22,211 nt of DNA, taken from the IMG/VR virus record IMGVR_UViG_3300034283_003860, positions 1-22,211 of that record, one strand, 5' to 3'. Positions 1,721-22,211 of the stretch are shown piece after piece. A program made the translations under genes and the position numbers. Position 1 is the stretch's first letter; every line of letters starts with the position of its first letter. Below the pieces are notes generated by a model. It did no database searches, was not told the origin of the DNA, and saw nothing but the letters and a program-made list of their open reading frames with translations. Origin of the DNA: a virus.

Positions 1721-2593
1721 TTAGCCGTCTTCTCGGCGGTTGGCGAAATGGGACCGGATCGCGTAGCGAAGTCCGAAAGGTGCTGCAGGTGTCCAGGTCA
1801 GCAGACCGTTATCGGCGTGAGTCAGGTGGATGGAAGGATCGAGCGTCTTGATCAAGACATCGTTGCGCTCCAGGTAGCGCCGGTCCTTCAGTTCACCGTG
1901 CCAGAGGTGACTGGCCGTGCCAGGAACACAGCCCATGGCGCGGCCTTTGATCCAAGCCTTCACCGGAGTGGCCCAGGCATCATAGTGGGCGCGCAAAGCC
2001 GGGTTCATGACGATGTGGCCGGGCTGGTCGTAGTCGAGGACAGCGGAGGCAAAGCCTACATCACCATTACCCACCACGAGGTGTTCGTAGAGACCTCCGC
2101 GTCGTTGAGTCCACAAAGCACGCCTTGCCGCCATGGCGAAACCGGGATGCGCAACGCAGCGATGAAGCAGATCAGGCTCCTTGCCGATGCCAGGGCGTTC
2201 CATGCTCACGCTGTCATCGTGCGCGAGCCATTGTGCTTTGGAAAATGGCTGGACGACGGGGAAAAAGTCCAAGGCACGGGCGGTTTGATCGAACCAATGC
2301 TCGCTGCTGAAGAGGATGTCTGCGTCCACCCAGGCAAGCGCCTCAAAGTGGCCTACCACCATGGTTGCTGCGATGTTCAGCAGACATTCCTTCTGCATCA
2401 TCACCTGGTCATTGTCGGCGGTGATCTGCTGCCAGCCAGGCATTCCTGTCGTTTGCAGAGGATGCCCTGGCAGTTGAGCCTCCACCCCGTAAACGGGCAG
2501 GCCCTTGGTGGACTCCAGAAAGCGGCGCAGGTTTTGCCGAGGCCGCTCAAAGCCGAACCAGTTGTAGTGACAGGTAATGATGGCGAGCTTCAT
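1721..2593 (-). CDS. GT-A fold glycosyltransferase of the tail-fibre module
   Basis: A 290-aa putative nucleotide-sugar glycosyltransferase. The N-terminus (LAIITCHYNWFGFERPRQN) resembles a GT-A Rossmann start. A DxD metal/sugar-nucleotide motif sits at D90-D92 (LAWVDADILF). A VGNGDVGF motif (about 174-181) occupies the place of the acceptor/base region, and the C-terminus has the HLWHG (229-233) plus DRRYLERNDVL signature seen in galactosyltransferase-like phage and bacterial GTs. It begins 3 bases after the stop of a fibre gene and is cotranscribed with it. It could therefore glycosylate fibre or virion protein, host surface polysaccharide, or modified DNA bases. The acceptor cannot be read from sequence. 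No signal peptide or membrane segment is seen, so it should be cytoplasmic. Confidence 0.8.
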   Translation of the reverse strand: MKLAIITCHYNWFGFERPRQNLRRFLESTKGLPVYGVEAQLPGHPLQTTGMPGWQQITADNDQVMMQKECLLNIAATMVVGHFEALAWVDADILFSSEHWFDQTARALDFFPVVQPFSKAQWLAHDDSVSMERPGIGKEPDLLHRCVAHPGFAMAARRALWTQRRGGLYEHLVVGNGDVGFASAVLDYDQPGHIVMNPALRAHYDAWATPVKAWIKGRAMGCVPGTASHLWHGELKDRRYLERNDVLIKTLDPSIHLTHADNGLLTWTPAAPFGLRYAIRSHFANRREDG

Positions 2594-13841: not shown

Positions 13842-14678
13842 CAGGGTGGATGTCCGGGAAGGCGTGTCAACTCGGGTGGCTGTGAGGGACCGCAGACGGG
13901 CGATCACCTCGTCGCGACTCTTGACCGTGCCGGCCAGGTTGAAGCGCTGAGCCTTGCGGGCGCTAAAGCTCTGTCCTTCCATCGCCTCGTCCGGGATCTT
14001 GCGGCCACGCGCGAGCACGGCGGTTTTGAAGTCGGCGGCGACTTCCTCAATGTCGGACTGGATCAACGCACGCTGCTCTTCGCTCAGCGACACACCGGGC
14101 GTGCCCATGCCCTTGAACTTGCCTGCGGCAAACACTTCTACTTTTAATCCCTGGCTGCGGAACTTTTCGGCGCTGTCGATGAACGGCAACATCACACCAA
14201 TGGAGCCGACACGCGCACTCGGTGTGGCATAGACGGCATCGCACTGGGACGCGATCCAGTAGGCGGCGCTGCACATCTGGCCTGCGCTGAAGGCGTGGAT
14301 GGATTTGAGCTTGGCCGCATCCGCCACGGCCTGGGCCAGTTCGGGCGTTCCATTGACCGTTCCGCCTGGTGAGTCGATGTCCAGCAGGATGGATTTCACT
14401 TCATCCCGTGCGACCGCTTCTTGAATCGCTTCCGCCACCTGGTTCATGTCGGTCGCACCAAAAAGCAGCGAAGAGATCAGATCCGGGTCGCGCATGAGCG
14501 GGCCGTGGATGCGAATGATACCAACGCCATCCTCCACGGACAGAAGCGGGTTCGATGAAGGCTCAGGCAGCGTCAGACGCGCATCGAAGAACGCCATGGC
14601 TTGAGCTGCCATGCTGTGCATGGCCTCGGAGGTGATGAGCCAGGGCTGGCGGGAGAGAAGCGAATCGAGCGCGGTCAC
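13407..14678 (-). CDS. Prohead protease (S49/SppA-like) with C-terminal scaffold-like region
   Basis: A 423-aa protein that should cleave scaffold and portal proteins during head maturation, like lambda gpC. The ClpP/SppA-type domain covers about 45-270. It shows ILLDIDSPGGTVNG (97-110), the nucleophile S137 in AGQMCSAAYWIAS, ARVGSIGVML, and the general-base lysine in AAGKFKGMGTP (K187 or K189). Residues 280-400 are a coiled coil rich in Gln, Glu and Lys. Met280 (13839-13841) could start a nested scaffold of about 144 aa, as lambda Nu3 lies within C. The start is GTG at 14676-14678, overlapping the portal stop as GTGA and preceded by a TTGAC box at 14 bases. Confidence 0.92.
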   Translation of the reverse strand: MTALDSLLSRQPWLITSEAMHSMAAQAMAFFDARLTLPEPSSNPLLSVEDGVGIIRIHGPLMRDPDLISSLLFGATDMNQVAEAIQEAVARDEVKSILLDIDSPGGTVNGTPELAQAVADAAKLKSIHAFSAGQMCSAAYWIASQCDAVYATPSARVGSIGVMLPFIDSAEKFRSQGLKVEVFAAGKFKGMGTPGVSLSEEQRALIQSDIEEVAADFKTAVLARGRKIPDEAMEGQSFSARKAQRFNLAGTVKSRDEVIARLRSLTATRVDTPSRTSTLMKTAEEQLTDALARIQTLEADAKARESLMTDASAQVETFKASLTTKEQAHQTALQQVCTERDTLKGQLIAVQGDVERQCKRVGELETQVRDLNAREQDLDKRAAAKAAQIAAEMGTQVPAKITPAGDKAPTTAAEVWNRQFAKA

Positions 14679-16111
14679 GCCCCGTTTGGAGTGTCAACAG
14701 CAGCAGGTGGCGGTGCAGGCACGACTGAGCCACCGCTGGGCTTCCACAGCATGTCGAGAGGCACCCCGTATTTGGTGGCGGTTTCGAGGATCATCTTCGC
14801 GTCACGCGCACGCCGTTCGAGTTCCTCACCGAAGTCCGCGCCCAGTTCCTCGTAGTGATCGCTGATGGTCTTGAGCCCCATCTCGACATCGGAACGGTTT
14901 TGCTGCGCTTCACGACCTGCATCGACGCTGAGCTTGCGCGGACACACGCAGCTAATTTTCCACCATCCCTGGACGGGCGGAAATTCGCCACGAGCAATCG
15001 CATCACCGATCACATAGAACCACACGGGTTTGATCAGTCGTTGGATGAGGATCATCTGGCGGTAGGAGAACCGTCGATCTGCCTTGGCCACGACCAATCG
15101 AACGCCTGCTCCACCGACCTTGGATGAGTCTGCCGCGAATTCATAAGGCAGCACGCCAAGCGCGGAGTCACGGCGCAGATGCTCCAGGAACCCGGTGAAC
15201 GTCGGGCTGGGCCGCTTCGGCTCGAAGGAATCGAGCGATTCGTTGGGCTTGAGGGCGACCAGTTTCCCGCCGGTGATCTGCTGAAGGGTGGCCGGGCTGC
15301 TAGCTTCGCTGGCGGCGGCCTGATCACCTTCGATGGCAAAATCTGAATCATCCTTCAGATCACCTGTCTCCGTCTTCAGCACACGGGTCACGTCGCAGTT
15401 GTCCTTCACGGCGTGCTTTTCCAAAGCGATCAGCTCCATCTCGTCGATGATGTGATTGATGGAATGCTGGATCGTCGGGGCGTTGCGAACGCTCGTGGCG
15501 TTCTCCGGCTCAAACACATGCAGCACGCTTTGGGCAGGCAGCTCACGCGCACCTTTGTCCTCGATCACTCGATACGAAACCGGCGCTCCCCAGGCATCCA
15601 GGGTGATGCCGTGGTAGCTTTTGGCGGCCGTGTTGCCATCACCGATGCGGTGTGACTCGATCAACTGAAGCGCGGCAAGCCCAAGTCGGCTGCGGGTAAG
15701 ATGAATGAAGTATTCACCGTCCACATCCATGCCGCGACACACTAGCGACTGCACTTCCTCAAAGCTGAACCTGCCGGTGACTTCGCATCGGGCTGACCAG
15801 CCACGGAAATAGGCTTCCGCTTTGCGGTTCCATTCCGGGTCATCCGACTGTGCTTGCGGGCGAATGCCATCTCCTGTGGAATAGATCGCCATGTTGCTGA
15901 CCATCTCACGCACGAAGCCGGAGTTCTTGGCGAGGTAACGCGCACGCTTCACCAACTCACGATGAACATGAGGCGTGAGGTCCTGCTTCGCATCACGCGG
16001 GGAGGCGCCAGGCACCTGACCTCGGCGCGGCGATGGATTGGCGGATTCGTAGATCGAGCTGACGGCCCTGGGCTTGAACCAGCCATTCACCCATTGGAGA
16101 AGTGGATTCAT
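14675..16111 (-). CDS. Portal protein (lambda gpB family)
   Basis: A 478-aa portal that would form the dodecameric ring through which DNA enters and leaves. It has the lambda-portal order: helical N-terminus with RELVKRARYLAKNSGFVREMVSNMAIYSTGDGIRPQ, then EAYFRGWSARCEVTGRFSFEEVQSLVCRGMDVDGEYFI, DAWGAPVSYRVIEDKG, QSVLHVFEPENATSVRNAP, and a C-terminal stem with KADRRFSYRQMILIQRLIKPVWFYVI. Length is slightly below lambda gpB (533 aa). Start overlaps the gpW-like stop as ATGA (16108-16111). Confidence 0.93.
   Translation of the reverse strand: MNPLLQWVNGWFKPRAVSSIYESANPSPRRGQVPGASPRDAKQDLTPHVHRELVKRARYLAKNSGFVREMVSNMAIYSTGDGIRPQAQSDDPEWNRKAEAYFRGWSARCEVTGRFSFEEVQSLVCRGMDVDGEYFIHLTRSRLGLAALQLIESHRIGDGNTAAKSYHGITLDAWGAPVSYRVIEDKGARELPAQSVLHVFEPENATSVRNAPTIQHSINHIIDEMELIALEKHAVKDNCDVTRVLKTETGDLKDDSDFAIEGDQAAASEASSPATLQQITGGKLVALKPNESLDSFEPKRPSPTFTGFLEHLRRDSALGVLPYEFAADSSKVGGAGVRLVVAKADRRFSYRQMILIQRLIKPVWFYVIGDAIARGEFPPVQGWWKISCVCPRKLSVDAGREAQQNRSDVEMGLKTISDHYEELGADFGEELERRARDAKMILETATKYGVPLDMLWKPSGGSVVPAPPPAAVDTPNGA
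14693..14697 (-). promoter_or_regulatory. TTGAC start box, prohead protease
   Basis: TTGAC exactly 14 bases before GTG 14678, within the portal coding end; supports the GTG start. Confidence 0.5.
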
Positions 16112-17465: not shown

Positions 17466-17470
17466 GTCAA
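17466..17470 (-). promoter_or_regulatory. TTGAC start box, holin-like gene
   Basis: TTGAC 15 bases before ATG 17450, overlapping the TGA stop of the large terminase; decides between two in-frame starts. Confidence 0.5.
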
Positions 17471-19287
17471 TCTGCGGTGGGTTCGTCGTCCTCTTTGATC
17501 TCGGCATCCGCCTTCACCGACTCCTGTCCCACCAGTTTGAGCATCACCGCTGCGGCCACCTGCATGGCTTCACAATCCCAGTAATGATTGGGCCGCTTGC
17601 CGATGCGTTCCCACAACCACTTGCCGCCTTTGCGGACACGCTGCTCGCTCTCCATCTGCGTGAGATAGTCATCTCCGGCATCCTCAGCGATTTCCCAGGT
17701 GGGGCCACGCTCCGGGTCCTGATTGCGGCGCAGTCGCGCGAGCATGTCTTTGATGTTGAGGTTCGACCAGTAGAACACTGAGCAGGTCTGGCCGCGTCCT
17801 AGCACCACCTTGCGGCGAGGGGAGTAGAACCGATGCACGCTCCGGCCTTCCTTGGTGCGGTGAACGTAGGTGGCACGACGGTCGCCCATGAGAGCCACCC
17901 AGCCGTGTTTGGCGCATTCGCGATACACGTCATAGGTGGCGTGGCCGGCATCGACGAATACCAGGTTGGAGTGAATGGAAAAGCGTTCCTGCAAGGTGAG
18001 CACTTCGTCCCAGGTGGGCACGCGCTCACGCCACACCAAACGCGAAGAACCTTCCAACGACCAGCCACGCACGATCACGAAGAAGTGATCCATCTGGCAG
18101 TCCACCGTCATGAATCGAAGCGGCGACGCCACCTGATCAGGATCGAAGGGAGGCGTGAGGAACTTGCCCTGCCGGTTCACCGCCGCCTCATCGTCCCAAG
18201 TTTCACCGAGACGATAACCGCTGGGAGTGATCTCCAATTTAAAATCCTCCAGGTAGTCGCGCCATGGCAAAGCAAGGCGCTTCTGGTAGAACTGACGCAG
18301 TGGTTCCAGATCGCCCTGCTTCGCAGCCGCCTTGGCACGCAGATACAACTCAGCAAGCCTGCCCCAGCTCATCGCGCAGAGGGCGTTCCAATGAAACCCG
18401 ACGTTCTCCGGTGACGCGTTCAGATTGGTGCGCACATAACGACCCGTGGTGCTGAGCACACGTCGCGTGCGGTCGCTGTCATCGAACGCATGACCGCAGC
18501 CTTCACAAGTCAGCGAGGCGGTCTCGCGCACGCGGGCGAAGTTCCATTCGCCATCATCATCGCGGGCGTCCTTGCTCCATTCCACGTTCTCCCATTTGAA
18601 AGGCTGGCGGAGGTCACAGTGCGGACACGCAAAGGTCCACTCGCGCATGTCAGTGGTTTCAAACTTGCGGTGAGTGTCATCGTTCTCTTCCCCGCCCTGG
18701 GACATGAAGAGGCACTTGCCCAGCCAGCCGAAGGCGGTGACACGGGCTTCCGCCTCCGCCATGTGGCCCACGGGCCAGCGCCAGGTTTCATCGCCGATCA
18801 ACCAGCGGATGGAGCGGCGTTGCAGGTTGGTCTTGTTGTGGGCACCAAGCACCCAGAGCGTCATGCCATTGGAAAAATGCTTGGTGCTCGTCTTGAGCTT
18901 GTGCCGGTCACGCGGGTAGAGCGCCTGCACGCTGGGGCACTCATCAAACACTCGGCCAAGGCGGCTTTCGGCCTGATCTTTCGCGTCATCATCGGTCTGG
19001 TCGAGCCAGAGCGCGGGTCCCGGCAGGTTGGGGATGATGTAGCAGAGGCCGATCTCACCGATCGTGGTCTTGCTCGATTGGATCGCCGCAATGATCGAAA
19101 CGATCCGAACCTTGGGATCAACCAGAGCTTCAAGGGGCTCCTTCAACCACGGTGAGTTGTCCGCACGAAATCTGCCCGGAACCGGCGAGTAGGGGATGGA
19201 ATGAATGTGTTCCTCCGCCCAGGCCCATGGTGGACGGCGGTCAGGTGGACGCCATGCTTCGCACCAGATTGCTTCGAGAATGCTCAC
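17467..19287 (-). CDS. Terminase large subunit (GpA family)
   Basis: A 606-aa packaging motor and nuclease. Its Walker A-like sequence is IQSSKT (about 69-74), and Walker B is WLIGDETWRW (D166-E167). A zinc-finger-like C219-x2-C222...C259-x2-C262 lies in the middle, and an RNase H-like nuclease domain begins near TVDCQMDHFFVIVRGW with further acids in LVFVDAGHATYDVY. Length is close to lambda gpA (641 aa). The start is GTG at 19285-19287, supported by a TTGAC box exactly 14 bases upstream. It is separated from the small subunit by the inserted lipocalin gene. Confidence 0.95.
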   Translation of the reverse strand: MSILEAIWCEAWRPPDRRPPWAWAEEHIHSIPYSPVPGRFRADNSPWLKEPLEALVDPKVRIVSIIAAIQSSKTTIGEIGLCYIIPNLPGPALWLDQTDDDAKDQAESRLGRVFDECPSVQALYPRDRHKLKTSTKHFSNGMTLWVLGAHNKTNLQRRSIRWLIGDETWRWPVGHMAEAEARVTAFGWLGKCLFMSQGGEENDDTHRKFETTDMREWTFACPHCDLRQPFKWENVEWSKDARDDDGEWNFARVRETASLTCEGCGHAFDDSDRTRRVLSTTGRYVRTNLNASPENVGFHWNALCAMSWGRLAELYLRAKAAAKQGDLEPLRQFYQKRLALPWRDYLEDFKLEITPSGYRLGETWDDEAAVNRQGKFLTPPFDPDQVASPLRFMTVDCQMDHFFVIVRGWSLEGSSRLVWRERVPTWDEVLTLQERFSIHSNLVFVDAGHATYDVYRECAKHGWVALMGDRRATYVHRTKEGRSVHRFYSPRRKVVLGRGQTCSVFYWSNLNIKDMLARLRRNQDPERGPTWEIAEDAGDDYLTQMESEQRVRKGGKWLWERIGKRPNHYWDCEAMQVAAAVMLKLVGQESVKADAEIKEDDEPTAD

Positions 19288-19345: not shown

Positions 19346-19897
19346 ATGATCCGGCCAGTCCTTACCGCCTTGCTGCTTGCGACCACAGTGTTCTTTAATT
19401 CTTGCGCATCCCACCCTGTGAAACCGCTCGCAACCGTTCCCAAAGTCGAGTTGCCCCGTTACATGGGCAAGTGGCATGAGGTGGCCAGGTTGCCCATGTT
19501 CTTCCAGCGTGGCTGCGTCAAATCCACCGCCGAGTATGCGATAAAACCAGATGGAGCGGTATCAGTCATCAATCGCTGCCTGAAGAACGGAAAGCCAAAG
19601 CAAGTCCGAGGGACGGCGACCGTGGTTGATGCCCGAAGCAATGCGGTTCTCGAAGTGCGATTCAATGAATGGTTCTCCGTCTTCATTCCTCGTGCGAAAC
19701 AGGGGAACTACTTCATCGTCTGGCTTGCGGCGGACTATTCCGCCGCCGTCGTGGGAACGCCGGATCGGAAGTGCCTTTGGATCTTGGCGCGCACGACCAG
19801 CCTGCCAAAAGCCACCTATGACGAGATCGTCGCTCATTGCAGCGGGCTTGGTTTCCCGGTTGAGAGTCTGATTGTTGAGAAGGCTCAGCAGCCCTGA
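19346..19897 (+). CDS. blc: Moron: Blc-type outer membrane lipocalin
   Basis: A 183-aa lipocalin. The N-terminus is a signal peptide with lipobox-like FFNSC, lipidation expected at C20, implying export to the outer membrane in a Gram-negative host. The fold signature is present: GKWHEVARLP with G41 and W43, and the C-terminal TPDRKCLWILAR with strands before it. The family binds lipids such as lysophospholipids and helps in membrane stress. The gene sits on the opposite strand between small and large terminase, with 58 bases to the large subunit start and 5 bases to the small subunit stop. That is a classic moron position. There is no TTGAC box before it, unlike the phage genes. ATG at 19339 in another frame is not used. 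Confidence 0.9.
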   Translation: MIRPVLTALLLATTVFFNSCASHPVKPLATVPKVELPRYMGKWHEVARLPMFFQRGCVKSTAEYAIKPDGAVSVINRCLKNGKPKQVRGTATVVDARSNAVLEVRFNEWFSVFIPRAKQGNYFIVWLAADYSAAVVGTPDRKCLWILARTTSLPKATYDEIVAHCSGLGFPVESLIVEKAQQP

Positions 19898-19902
19898 GTG
19901 CA

Positions 19903-20508
19903 TCACTTCCCGCCCTCATGGAGGATGGTGAGCACCTCATCAATGGCTTTACGGCACTCCTCTTGAATGCCCGTCGCATCGAGTCCAGACAGGATCGGTG
20001 GCAACTCTGACTCGAACTTGTTGCGCAACAAGGCGGTGGCCCGCCCGATCTGCGTCGTCCATGTGCGCCTCACTTCTTCGACGGTCACATAAAGTCCTTT
20101 GCGGACTGCGACCTTGAGTTCGCGTTCTTCCACTTCGGCGAGCAGTTTGCGGGCACGCAGGGCGGTGTCGAAATCAGTGCCTGGCTCGGCTCCCTTCAGG
20201 TCATGCCGTTTCATGAACTCACGCCATGCGGCCACATCGTGCAGGCCGTTAGCGGCGGCCTGTGGCGCGTCCTTGCGCTTCTTCCACGTGGTGATCGACT
20301 GCCGCGTTGTGCCAAGGAATTCGGCCAACTCCACGAAGTTGCGGGCGAAGGCGGGGCCGCTTCCACCCGCCGTGCTGCTGGCGAGATTTTGCAGCATGCT
20401 GCGCTCCGCTCGCGTCAGCTTGCCTCCCTTGTGAACGCGTTGGACGAGATTGGCGAGATCCTTGTTGAGGAGCTTGCGGGCGAGATCAGGCGGGAGCGAG
20501 GATTCCAT
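19903..20508 (-). CDS. Terminase small subunit (Nu1-like)
   Basis: A 201-aa DNA-recognition subunit. A helix-turn-helix lies about 57-80 (NFVELAEFLGTTRQSITTWKKRKDAP). The C-terminal half (about 112-175) has the long helix AEVEERELKVAVRKGLYV followed by EEVRRTWTTQIGRATALLRNKFESELPPIL, a pattern I know from Nu1-type small terminase subunits. Start ATG 20508 has a TTGAC box 17 bases upstream. First gene of the packaging-morphogenesis operon; stop is 5 bases from the stop of the convergent lipocalin. Confidence 0.85.
   Translation of the reverse strand: MESSLPPDLARKLLNKDLANLVQRVHKGGKLTRAERSMLQNLASSTAGGSGPAFARNFVELAEFLGTTRQSITTWKKRKDAPQAAANGLHDVAAWREFMKRHDLKGAEPGTDFDTALRARKLLAEVEERELKVAVRKGLYVTVEEVRRTWTTQIGRATALLRNKFESELPPILSGLDATGIQEECRKAIDEVLTILHEGGK
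20017..20032. repeat. 16-bp palindrome with GTTGCGCAAC core
   Basis: CTTGTTGCGCAACAAG, a perfect 16-bp palindrome inside the small terminase gene, encoding LLRNK. Confidence 0.7.
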
Positions 20509-20532: not shown

Positions 20533-20757
20533 TCACTTCATCGCCAGCAGTTTCATCAACGCCACCACGGCATAGCCACGCGGTGTGGCGCGCTCCTGCT
20601 CCCAGTTTTCCAGCGTTCGCTTGCTGATGCCAAGAAACTCCGCCGCATCACGCTGGCTGAACGCCTTCTTCTCCCGCCATGCCTGAAGTGCACGGGCGAA
20701 TTTGCGGGGAGTCACCCCTTTGGGAAGTTTCATGGCAGCCATACGCAAGTCACGCAT
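20533..20757 (-). CDS. Small HTH (XRE-type) regulator
   Basis: A 74-aa protein with an XRE/Cro-type helix-turn-helix: FSQRDAAEFLGISKRTLENWEQERATP. Start chosen at ATG 20755-20757 because a TTGAC box lies exactly 14 bases upstream. A longer start at 20766 would leave only 5 bases, and ATG 20733 (MKLPKGV) is also possible. It diverges from the ParB-like gene with a 43-base shared intergenic region and is followed by the small terminase 24 bases later, so it may control late transcription. A full CI-like repressor is not visible. Confidence 0.75.
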   Translation of the reverse strand: MRDLRMAAMKLPKGVTPRKFARALQAWREKKAFSQRDAAEFLGISKRTLENWEQERATPRGYAVVALMKLLAMK

Positions 20758-20771
20758 AGCCCGCATCTGAC

Positions 20772-20800: not shown

Positions 20801-21577
20801 GTGAGTATTCCCATTTACTGCGCCCACACGCGGCTCATTGATCCCAACACGCTGAAGCCTAACCCGGCCAACCCGAACCGGCACAGTGCGCATCAGATCG
20901 CCTTGCTGGCCTCCATCATTCAGGAGCAGGGCTGGCGGAACTCGATCACCCTCTCCAAACGCAGCGGGATGATCGTGCGCGGGCATGGTCGGCTGGAGGC
21001 GGCGCTTCTGATCGGCTGTGAATCCGTGCCGGTGGATGAGCAGGACTATGCCAGCGAAGCCGAGGAACTCGCTGATCTGCTCGCGGACAACCGCCTCGCA
21101 GAACTGGCGGAACTTGATGAAGGTGATTTGAAGCGGCTGCTCAAATCCATCCAGGAAAGCGATCCCTCCTTTGATCTCGAACTCACAGGCTTTGCCGAAG
21201 ACGAGATCCGCAAACTGTTCGACGCCGAAGACCCCGCCGAGGAGATGGAAATCATCCCCCGCATGGAGTGTCAGGCGTTCGAGCACCACGACTACCTCGT
21301 CTTCATGTTCCATGACCTGCGCGACTGGATGCAGGTGCTTCAACTCATGGGCGTGCGTGAGGTGGATTACTCGATCACACGAACCACCAAAAAACTCGGC
21401 ATCGGCCGTGTCCTCTATGGAAAACGCCTCCTCGATCTCTGCAAACGAGCCGCTCTGGCCGGAACTCCAACCCCTGAGCCTGCGCCTGGTCATCCTGAGC
21501 CGCAGTCGGGCGCGAACGATGACCAGCCACAAACTGTTCCCGAACGCCACGCTGCTCGTGCCGGAAAGCGAGCTTGA
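20801..21577 (+). CDS. ParB-like protein of a DNA modification cassette
   Basis: A 258-aa protein. The ParB N-terminal domain is clear: PNPANPNRHSAHQIALLASI, then GWRNSITLSKRSGMIVRGHGRLEAALLIGCESVPV with the G61-H-G-R64 nucleotide-binding/catalytic motif, and ADNRLAELAELD. This is the phage/methylase-associated type rather than chromosome-segregation ParB, as there is no HTH or ParA partner. Residues about 150-215 form a second domain (MECQAFEHHDYLVFMFHDLRDW, KKLGIGRVLYGKRLLDL) that I do not recognise by name. GTG at 20801 is the most upstream start and has a TTGAC box 14 bases before it. The last 50 or so residues overlap the next gene. Confidence 0.82.
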   Translation: MSIPIYCAHTRLIDPNTLKPNPANPNRHSAHQIALLASIIQEQGWRNSITLSKRSGMIVRGHGRLEAALLIGCESVPVDEQDYASEAEELADLLADNRLAELAELDEGDLKRLLKSIQESDPSFDLELTGFAEDEIRKLFDAEDPAEEMEIIPRMECQAFEHHDYLVFMFHDLRDWMQVLQLMGVREVDYSITRTTKKLGIGRVLYGKRLLDLCKRAALAGTPTPEPAPGHPEPQSGANDDQPQTVPERHAARAGKRA

Positions 21578-22211
21578 GCAATATGCCCACATCCCGTTGG
21601 AGAAGGTCACGGTGCCTGATGCCGTGATGGGTATCTCCTCGTTGCGCAACTGGCTGCTCCAACACTTCAAGGAGGACGCGATCATCATGCTCGATGACGA
21701 CATCAGCGCCTGCGTCTGCATGGTGTCGCTTCGCTGCCGAAAGCTGTCCGTGGAGGAAACGCTGCAAATGCTCAGCAACTCGGCCTACAATGCCCGTGGA
21801 GCTGGAGCACGCCTGTTTGGCTGGCATCAGCGCAGTGATCCGCGCCTGCTGCAACGCAATGATCCCTTTGGCGTGAATCATTGGGTGGGCGGAGCGGTTG
21901 GTGTGGTGCGCGATGCTGAAGGTGGAGTGCCGGTTTGGGATGAACTACTCAAGTGCAAGTGCGACATCGACGCCTCGCTCCAGGAGCTTCTCGACAATCG
22001 CCTGGTCTGGAATGAGGCGCGATTCTGCTTTGTGCAGGAGCGCGACAAGAACCTGGGCGGCAATTCATTGTTCCGCAGCGCAGAGCGCATCGCCACGGAG
22101 AAGCGGCATCTGAAGCGCAAGTGGAAGGCCCACATCGACTTCGGTGACTACAAGAGCCAGGACCGCGTCGCAATGAATGCCCCGCGCCGTCAGAGCATCG
22201 CACTTGGATGA
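21417..22211 (+). CDS. TET-associated-type glycosyltransferase (TAGT-like)
   Basis: A GT-A fold glycosyltransferase of about 264 aa. Motifs seen: LRLVILSRSRARTMTSHKLFP (about 22-42), TLLVPESELEQYAHIP, the RNW motif (MGISSLRNWLLQHF, about 71-84) and a metal-binding DDD (MLDDDISACV, D93-D95). HWVGGAVGVVRD lies further on, with a charged acidic C-D-I-D (182-185). These match my memory of the TAGT family described by Iyer and colleagues in phages carrying TET/JBP, where it glycosylates hydroxymethylated bases. The start is uncertain: ATG 21417 gives a 161-base overlap with the ParB-like gene. The conserved region begins near 21486, so a later non-ATG start is possible. The gene ends at the window edge; no TET/JBP is inside the window. 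Confidence 0.72.
   Translation: MENASSISANEPLWPELQPLSLRLVILSRSRARTMTSHKLFPNATLLVPESELEQYAHIPLEKVTVPDAVMGISSLRNWLLQHFKEDAIIMLDDDISACVCMVSLRCRKLSVEETLQMLSNSAYNARGAGARLFGWHQRSDPRLLQRNDPFGVNHWVGGAVGVVRDAEGGVPVWDELLKCKCDIDASLQELLDNRLVWNEARFCFVQERDKNLGGNSLFRSAERIATEKRHLKRKWKAHIDFGDYKSQDRVAMNAPRRQSIALG
21641..21650. repeat. GTTGCGCAAC palindrome copy
   Basis: 10-bp palindrome inside the TAGT-like gene, encoding LRN of its RNW motif. Confidence 0.7.

What the first reader, a model, noticed from the sequence alone, without database searches (positions are those of the whole stretch)
20801..22211. ParB-like plus TAGT-like glycosyltransferase: probable DNA base hypermodification cassette
The TAGT family is known from phages in which TET/JBP enzymes make 5-hydroxymethylcytosine that is then glycosylated. 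Here a TAGT-like enzyme (SRSRART, RNW, DDD motifs) follows a ParB-domain protein carrying an extra C-terminal domain I cannot name. The cassette diverges from the late operon and runs off the window, so the oxygenase or methylase would be expected just to the right. If confirmed, the prophage protects its DNA with sugar-modified bases, and the ParB protein is a candidate for targeting or restricting the modification.
Basis: partly seen in the sequence, partly recalled or inferred. Interest (0 to 1): 0.75.

Follow-up and report, generated by a model that had tools for sequence, protein, structure and literature searches.

The report
ParB–glycosyltransferase pair that probably sugar-coats DNA
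This Verrucomicrobia prophage carries a two-gene module, a ParB-like protein always paired with a sugar-adding enzyme, which recurs beside the DNA-packaging genes of very different phages and probably attaches sugars to viral DNA, although none of these phages carries a recognisable enzyme that makes the chemical handle such sugars normally need.

Summary
ORF 20801-21577 is ParB-like with an extra C-terminal domain. ORF 21417-22211 is an intact, divergent TAGT-type GT-A glycosyltransferase whose stop codon is the window's last codon.

The reading is partly supported. The predicted TET/JBP, methylase or hydroxymethylase to the right is not there: in over 50 related contigs the next genes encode an MgsA_C-like protein, often a DNA ligase, an amidoligase and a class-II glutamine amidotransferase. 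Profiles for TET/JBP, thymidylate synthase/dCMP hydroxymethylase and C5 methylase found nothing credible in about 52 relatives. The TET profile had no positive control.

What is there instead is a strict two-gene module. In all 162 GT loci with enough upstream sequence, ParB lies directly upstream. All 80 loci found by the ParB C-terminal domain alone encode the GT (42 of these contigs are new). The pair recurs in Verrucomicrobiota, Microbacterium, Bacteroidia and Streptococcus (pro)phages, usually beside terminase. Lactobacillus phage c5 has a parallel ParB–TAGT pair. ParB-like genes elsewhere pair with methylases, Mom, ABC–GNAT or PAPS-reductase enzymes.

Best explanation: a ParB-guided DNA glycosylation module without a recognisable phage-encoded handle-making enzyme. 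DNA modification itself is unproven. New variant of a known kind.

The parts
20801..21577 (+). ParB/Srx-fold protein (258 aa, GTG start); N-terminal ParB-like domain about residues 10-148
   Evidence: phrog_620 E 7.7e-32, phrog_498 (ParB-fused DNA methyltransferase) E 7.5e-37; Pfam ParB_N only 0.072 for this protein but above cut-off in paired homologues; AF2 pLDDT about 74-94 over residues 1-90
21248..21451 (+). ParB C-terminal domain (about residues 150-217; FExxxYxVxxF..DW....G......KxGxGRVxxG); candidate GT-docking adaptor
   Evidence: shared by GT-paired ParBs of all four lineages; not detected in the ParBs checked that pair with MTase, Mom, ABC-GNAT, PAPS reductase or canonical TAGT; searched for alone, 80 of 80 loci have the GT downstream
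21417..22211 (+). TAGT-type GT-A glycosyltransferase (264 aa, complete, overlaps ParB by 161 bp)
   Evidence: PF20691 E 2.8e-5, phrog_842 E 1.5e-10; hhalign to T6 TAGT probability 90; nearest named BFVD folds are TAGT proteins
21693..21701 (+). DDD metal/nucleotide-sugar motif (D93-D95)
   Evidence: invariant in alignments A1 and A3
21957..21971 (+). KxDxD motif (K181, D183, D185), candidate acceptor-site/catalytic acidic pair
   Evidence: invariant; corresponds to KEDYD in the L129 and Javan291 GTs and to CEDM in T6 TAGT
22056..22076 (+). GGNxxFR motif (G214-R220)
   Evidence: GGN..FR invariant in alignment A3; GGC...R in T6, L129 and Javan291
20533..20766 (-). divergent HTH regulator, context
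   Evidence: HTH_31 E 6.2e-9
19903..20508 (-). terminase small subunit, context
   Evidence: phrog_57 E 3e-9
17467..19287 (-). terminase large subunit (GpA type), context
   Evidence: GpA_ATPase E 2.5e-39, GpA_nuclease 6e-22

Best explanation
The two genes form a phage DNA-glycosylation module. The GT-A enzyme transfers a sugar from a nucleotide-sugar to bases of the phage's own DNA. The ParB-like protein is its DNA-side partner: the ParB domain contacts DNA (perhaps using CTP/ATP as a clamp or switch) and the C-terminal domain docks the GT. Lying beside terminase, the module probably acts on replicated DNA around the time of packaging and shields it from host nucleases in the next host. It works without a recognisable phage-encoded TET or hydroxymethylase, so the sugar goes onto an unmodified base atom, a host-made handle, or a handle made by an unrecognised phage protein. 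In the Verrucomicrobiota lineage the downstream amidoligase and glutamine amidotransferase may elaborate the product further. Shown: the gene pair, its obligate linkage, GT-A/TAGT homology, ParB homology and no recognisable handle-makers. Inferred: DNA as acceptor, docking by the C-terminal domain, timing, anti-restriction benefit and the amidation step.
For: (1) TAGT homology, a family with bona fide DNA glycosyltransferases: PF20691 2.8e-5 and phrog_842 1.5e-10; bridging homologue L129 scores PF20691 68 bits and hits Klebsiella T4-like beta-glucosyl-HMC-alpha-GTs at E 1e-5; among named viral folds the nearest are TAGTs. (2) Obligate pairing: ParB directly upstream of GT in 162 of 162 loci with upstream room; the converse scan by the ParB C-terminal domain gave 80 of 80 with GT; ParB and GT distance matrices correlate r=0.94 overall and 0.63 within the diverse set, shuffled maxima 0.15 and 0.10. 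(3) What ParB pairs with in other phages: N6/N4-MTase fusions upstream of terminase (Javan49, P8625, NatCom_27610), an overlapping Mom gene (phiEf11, Pfam Mom 1.8e-45), ABC-GNAT then TerS/TerL (Pmp13), PAPS reductase (035JT001), and canonical TAGT at 4.5e-54 then TerL (Lactobacillus c5). (4) Terminase linkage in the four C-terminal-domain lineages and c5, and a TerL hit downstream in 33 of 86 set B/C loci with the few TerL queries used. (5) Literature: ParB-like DpdB is the ATPase for dPreQ0 insertion into DNA (PMC12839542); ParBc genes accompany CmoX 5cxmC modification (PMC12783734); solitary TAGTs are proposed to be novel transferases (PMC13216743). (6) UDP-glucose dehydrogenase-like genes next to the GT in Microbacterium and Bacteroidia phages.
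Against: No direct evidence that DNA is the acceptor. In the TAGT systems known to modify DNA, the acceptor is already glucosylated hydroxymethylcytosine, and no hydroxymethylase was found. The window GT alone is below the Pfam cut-off. The AF2 models are modest (pLDDT 66 and 57), and the C-terminal domain is low confidence. No host-range or restriction data exist for these phages here.
Confidence: 0.6

Rival explanations
1. Classical two-step route: a host enzyme or an unrecognised phage enzyme makes 5-hydroxymethylpyrimidine (or 5-hydroxycytosine) in DNA and the TAGT glycosylates it; ParB only targets it.
For: Known TAGTs of T-even phages act on glucosylated 5hmC (PMC13216743, PMC13390438); the Tet_JBP profile had no positive control, so a divergent oxygenase could be missed.
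Against: TS/dCMP-HMase and C5-MTase profiles, with ringing controls, found nothing credible across the relatives. The unannotated genes of c5 and Javan291 and the early region of one Verrucomicrobiota relative hold no recognised oxygenase, methylase or hydroxymethylase domain. No handle-maker is a constant neighbour.
Confidence: 0.15
2. The GT glycosylates a protein, for example the neighbouring terminase, ParB itself or a host enzyme, and the module regulates packaging or takeover.
For: Close linkage to TerS/TerL in several lineages; GT-A fold neighbours in PDB include protein glycosyltransferases.
Against: The same terminase-linked ParB position elsewhere carries DNA-modifying enzymes; the terminases differ between lineages while the pair is constant; TAGT relatives act on DNA.
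Confidence: 0.13
3. Lysogenic conversion: the GT alters lipopolysaccharide or another surface polysaccharide, with ParB an unrelated partition protein.
For: Some structural neighbours are polysaccharide GTs, such as WrtF.
Against: No membrane or translocase genes seen beside it; strict pairing with a DNA-binding-type ParB in phages of Gram-positive and Gram-negative hosts; closest viral folds are TAGTs.
Confidence: 0.05

Closest known systems
TAGT family (PF20691; T6-type beta-glucosyl-HMC-alpha-glucosyltransferase)
   Same: GT-A core, DDD and acidic/GG...R motifs; homology through bridging members
   Different: Paired with ParB instead of a hydroxymethylase or alpha-/beta-GT; window protein divergent and below the Pfam cut-off
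TET/JBP-TAGT phage hypermodification cassettes (the source of the family name; recalled, not read here)
   Same: Uses a TAGT-type glycosyltransferase
   Different: No TET/JBP or C5-methylase found in relatives; ParB and terminase linkage instead
ParB-domain-fused phage DNA methyltransferases (phrog_498)
   Same: Same ParB-like domain and downstream linker; often upstream of terminase
   Different: The effector is a separate GT rather than a fused methylase; carries an extra C-terminal domain
ParB-Mom of Enterococcus phage phiEf11
   Same: Stand-alone ParB gene overlapping a DNA-modifying enzyme gene; Mom acts on unmodified adenine (established knowledge)
   Different: The enzyme is Mom, not a GT; its ParB lacks the C-terminal domain
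CmoA/CmoX/CmoY 5-carboxymethylcytosine systems (PMC12783734)
   Same: ParBc protein often nearby; ligases, some with predicted Gln-hydrolysing domains, make amides on DNA bases, as the amidoligase/GATase here might
   Different: No CmoX-type methylase found here; the amidoligase is of the Amidoligase_2 family and the core enzyme is a GT
DpdA/DpdB 7-deazaguanine DNA modification
   Same: A base-modifying enzyme with a ParB-like ATPase partner (PMC12839542)
   Different: Transglycosylase chemistry, not a glycosyltransferase; host defence island rather than phage gene pair

Membership tests
TAGT (PF20691) sequence family | Profile score above the curated cut-off (27.5 bits) | tested here: not met
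   Window GT 24.6 bits, E 2.8e-5; paired homologues L129 68 bits and Javan291 63.4 bits do meet it
TAGT (PF20691) sequence family | GT-A fold related to phage TAGTs | tested here: met
   AF2 model with confident core; Foldseek BFVD hits named TAGT E 4e-11 to 1e-8, PDB GT-A enzymes
TAGT (PF20691) sequence family | Conserved DDD and acidic acceptor-site motifs | tested here: met
   D93-D95, D183, D185, GGN..FR invariant
TAGT (PF20691) sequence family | Glycosylates a DNA base | not testable with these tools
   Needs LC-MS or an enzyme assay
TET/JBP-TAGT hypermodification cassette | TET/JBP dioxygenase encoded by the same phage | tested here: inconclusive
   No Tet_JBP hit in about 60 relatives, but the profile rang in no control genome
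TET/JBP-TAGT hypermodification cassette | C5-methylase supplying 5mC | tested here: not met
   No credible PF00145 hit in 10 large Verrucomicrobiota relatives, Quhwah, Javan291 or 39 further module contigs; one spurious 28-residue match in G003
T-even-type hmC glucosylation system | dCMP hydroxymethylase (thymidylate-synthase family) | tested here: not met
   PF00303 absent from module phages and from c5; T6 rings as control. The one other hit lies on a different contig (C78) of the Bacteroidia MAG behind L129
ParB/Srx phage partner family (phrog_620/phrog_498) | ParB-like N-terminal domain | tested here: met
   E 7.7e-32 and 7.5e-37
ParB/Srx phage partner family (phrog_620/phrog_498) | Genetic linkage to a DNA-modifying enzyme | tested here: inconclusive
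   Seen in most sampled ParB loci of other phages by Pfam domain or annotation; here the linked enzyme is a GT whose substrate is unproven
ParB/Srx phage partner family (phrog_620/phrog_498) | NTP binding or hydrolysis and DNA binding | not testable with these tools
   Box-II-like GHGRLEAA motif present; activity not assayed

The most novel reading that the evidence does not exclude
The ParB-GT pair is a self-sufficient DNA glycosylation system: with ParB as loader, it attaches a sugar directly to an unmodified DNA base, with no prior hydroxymethylation, and the ParB C-terminal domain is a dedicated adaptor, so that ParB is an exchangeable loading platform for many phage DNA-modifying enzymes at the packaging step.
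Probability: 0.22. Interest if true: 0.88.

Novelty: new variant of a known kind. Interest (0 to 1): 0.62.

Why it matters
If right, it gives a home to part of the 'solitary' TAGTs (288 of 753 phage genomes in PMC13216743) whose function is unknown, and predicts a new sugar-modified base chemistry that needs no hydroxymethyl handle or an unknown one. It also suggests a general role for the enigmatic ParB domains attached to phage DNA-modifying enzymes: an exchangeable DNA-loading partner next to terminase. Cultured phages carrying the pair (Lactobacillus c5, Microbacterium Quhwah and Gina) make this directly testable.

Tried and rejected
- TET/JBP, methylase or hydroxymethylase to the right of the GT: rejected for the relatives.
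- NCBIfam found no GT family; PDB by sequence found nothing relevant.
- UDP-glucose dehydrogenase as a universal partner: only Microbacterium, the Bacteroidia phage and L131.
- Amidoligase/GATase as core parts: not detected in the 86 set B/C loci, so accessory.
- A positive-control phage for Tet_JBP could not be fetched.
- Iyer et al. 2009 and 2013 are not in the library; one wrong id led to an unrelated paper.
- ParB C-terminal domain fold: AF2 confidence too low for a fold search; tblastn of the domain alone finds only Javan291 among 50,697 phage records and nothing in plasmids.
- Arthrobacter phage Kitkat has ParB near a GT-B enzyme and a distant MgsA_C-like gene; its ParB lacks the C-terminal domain, so it was not counted.
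- Lactococcus phage AM6 ParB is followed by a 221-aa protein with no Pfam hit, so it neither supports nor contradicts the partner pattern.
- No published restriction or DNA-modification data found for c5-type phages.

Full report
What is in the window. The window is a 22,211-bp virus record with an integrase at the left end, a late operon on the minus strand (tail, head, portal 14675-16111, TerL 17467-19287, TerS 19903-20508, HTH 20533-20766) and, divergent from it, two overlapping genes on the plus strand. The first, 20801-21577, is ParB-like (phrog_620 E 7.7e-32; phrog_498, ParB-fused DNA methyltransferase, E 7.5e-37). The second, 21417-22211, is a 264-aa glycosyltransferase whose stop codon is the last codon of the record, so it is complete. 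It matches Pfam TAGT at E 2.8e-5, just under the curated cut-off, and phrog_842 at E 1.5e-10.

Relatives. At least 125 viral contigs encode the GT; the best 80 are 74-97% identical to it. Host genomes with the GT are Verrucomicrobiota, including Prosthecobacter, Akkermansiaceae and Chthoniobacter flavus Ellin428, plus one distant Bacteroidia MAG. Close relatives (L002, L110) continue the cassette to the right: MgsA_C-like protein, ATP-dependent DNA ligase (not in all), Amidoligase_2, class-II glutamine amidotransferase, two small proteins, an AAA clamp-loader-like ATPase and a further AAA protein.

The family. Bridging homologues connect the window GT to bona fide TAGTs. The Bacteroidia GT (26% identical to the window GT) scores 68 bits to PF20691 and the Streptococcus phage Javan291 GT 63 bits, against a cut-off of 27.5. 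The Bacteroidia GT hits T4-like Klebsiella beta-glucosyl-HMC-alpha-GTs at E 1e-5. The window profile aligns with T6 TAGT at hhalign probability 90. The AF2 model (pLDDT 66, core over 80) is GT-A; among named viral structures its nearest are TAGT proteins. Acidic and glycine motifs are invariant and purifying selection is strong (dN/dS 0.07-0.16). The enzyme is therefore very probably active.

A two-gene module. ParB lies immediately upstream of the GT in 80 of 80 Verrucomicrobiota-type loci, 5 of 5 Bacteroidia-type, 73 of 73 Javan291-type and 4 of 4 Microbacterium-type loci with enough upstream sequence; the eight exceptions have at most 603 bp upstream. These ParBs share a C-terminal domain (FExxxYxVxxF..DW....G......KxGxGRVxxG) that was not detected in the ParBs checked that pair with methylases, Mom, ABC-GNAT or PAPS reductase, nor in c5 ParB. 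Searching for that domain alone returned 80 loci; all 80 have it fused to ParB and all 80 have the GT within 1.5 kb downstream; comparing contig names, 42 of these contigs were not in the earlier set. More distant versions of the domain with other partners could have been missed. ParB and GT distances correlate (r=0.94, 0.63 within the diverse set; shuffled maxima 0.15 and 0.10). The MgsA_C-like gene is a third shared part in Verrucomicrobiota and Microbacterium phages (phrog_16866; 56 Microbacterium records hold the GT and 56 the MgsA_C-like gene).

What ParB pairs with elsewhere. In other phages the same ParB-like gene, often by or upstream of terminase, is joined to DNA-modifying enzymes: an N6/N4-MTase fusion followed by an annotated C5-MTase, then TerS/TerL (Javan49); an MTase fusion then TerL (Verrucomicrobia phage P8625; NatCom_27610); a separate ParB overlapping Mom (phiEf11; Pfam Mom 1.8e-45); ABC-GNAT then TerS/TerL (Pmp13); PAPS reductase (035JT001). 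Lactobacillus phage c5 has ParB overlapping a canonical TAGT (4.5e-54) just before TerL. Published precedents are DpdB, a ParB-like ATPase for deazaguanine insertion (PMC12839542), and ParBc genes with 5-carboxymethylcytosine systems (PMC12783734). This is the main argument that the acceptor is DNA; it is inference, not proof.

No handle-maker. Profiles for thymidylate synthase/dCMP hydroxymethylase (with T6 ringing as control) and C5-methylase gave nothing credible in 10 large Verrucomicrobiota relatives, Quhwah, Javan291 and 39 other viral contigs with the module, nor did the former in c5. N6/N4 methylase was tested in the first eleven only. Two minor hits are set aside: a 28-residue C5-MTase match in G003, and a thymidylate synthase on a different contig of the Bacteroidia MAG. 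The Tet_JBP profile found nothing but rang in no control, so absence of TET is weaker. Domain scans of the unannotated genes of c5 and Javan291 and of the early region of one large Verrucomicrobiota relative found no oxygenase, methylase or hydroxymethylase. The classical 'hydroxymethyl first, sugar second' route is therefore not encoded in any recognisable form.

Mechanism. Most likely the ParB protein loads or targets the GT onto phage DNA, and the GT places a sugar on bases before or during packaging. UDP-glucose dehydrogenase-like genes beside the GT in Microbacterium and Bacteroidia phages hint at a uronic acid donor there. The Verrucomicrobiota amidoligase and amidotransferase could amidate such a sugar, but this is speculation. 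The acceptor atom is unknown: direct base glycosylation, a host-made handle and an unrecognised phage enzyme all remain open.

Novelty. TAGTs, ParB-methylase fusions and ParB-modification links are known; PMC13216743 notes solitary TAGTs of unknown function. I found no paper describing the obligate ParB-TAGT pair, its diagnostic C-terminal domain or its shared genomic slot, but the key Iyer/Aravind papers could not be read. I rate it a new variant of a known kind.

Noticed in passing
L002:7890-9563 and homologues in L003-L081: Amidoligase_2 followed by a class-II glutamine amidotransferase, downstream of ParB-GT in most Verrucomicrobiota prophages whose contig reaches that far; function unknown, possibly amidation of a modified base or sugar acid.
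   Followed up: partly
L002:5970-6572 and L101:13495-14115: MgsA_C/RarA-C-terminal-like protein (phrog_16866) next to the ParB-GT pair in both Verrucomicrobiota and Microbacterium phages, plus a separate AAA clamp-loader-like protein in the former; looks like a split RarA-like ATPase.
   Followed up: partly
window 19346-19897 +: Lipocalin_2 (Blc-like) gene (E 1.8e-44) on the opposite strand between the terminase subunits; a likely moron, also present in relative L110.
   Followed up: no
window 1721-2593 -: 290-aa protein beginning MKLAIITCHYNWFGFERPRQNLRRFLE, glycosyltransferase-like on inspection only, beside the tail-fibre gene; no Pfam or PHROG hit.
   Followed up: no
L300:90-1713 (Lactobacillus phage c5): ParB overlapping a canonical TAGT directly between the cos site and the terminase of a 50-gene dairy phage; a convenient test system.
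   Followed up: yes
L083:13217-14149 - and relatives: NAD-dependent epimerase/dehydratase gene (PF01370 E 1.4e-53) in several large relatives; possible nucleotide-sugar supplier.
   Followed up: partly
L118 (Chthoniobacter flavus Ellin428): Prophage with terL and amidoligase frames broken into pieces while ParB and GT stay open.
   Followed up: no
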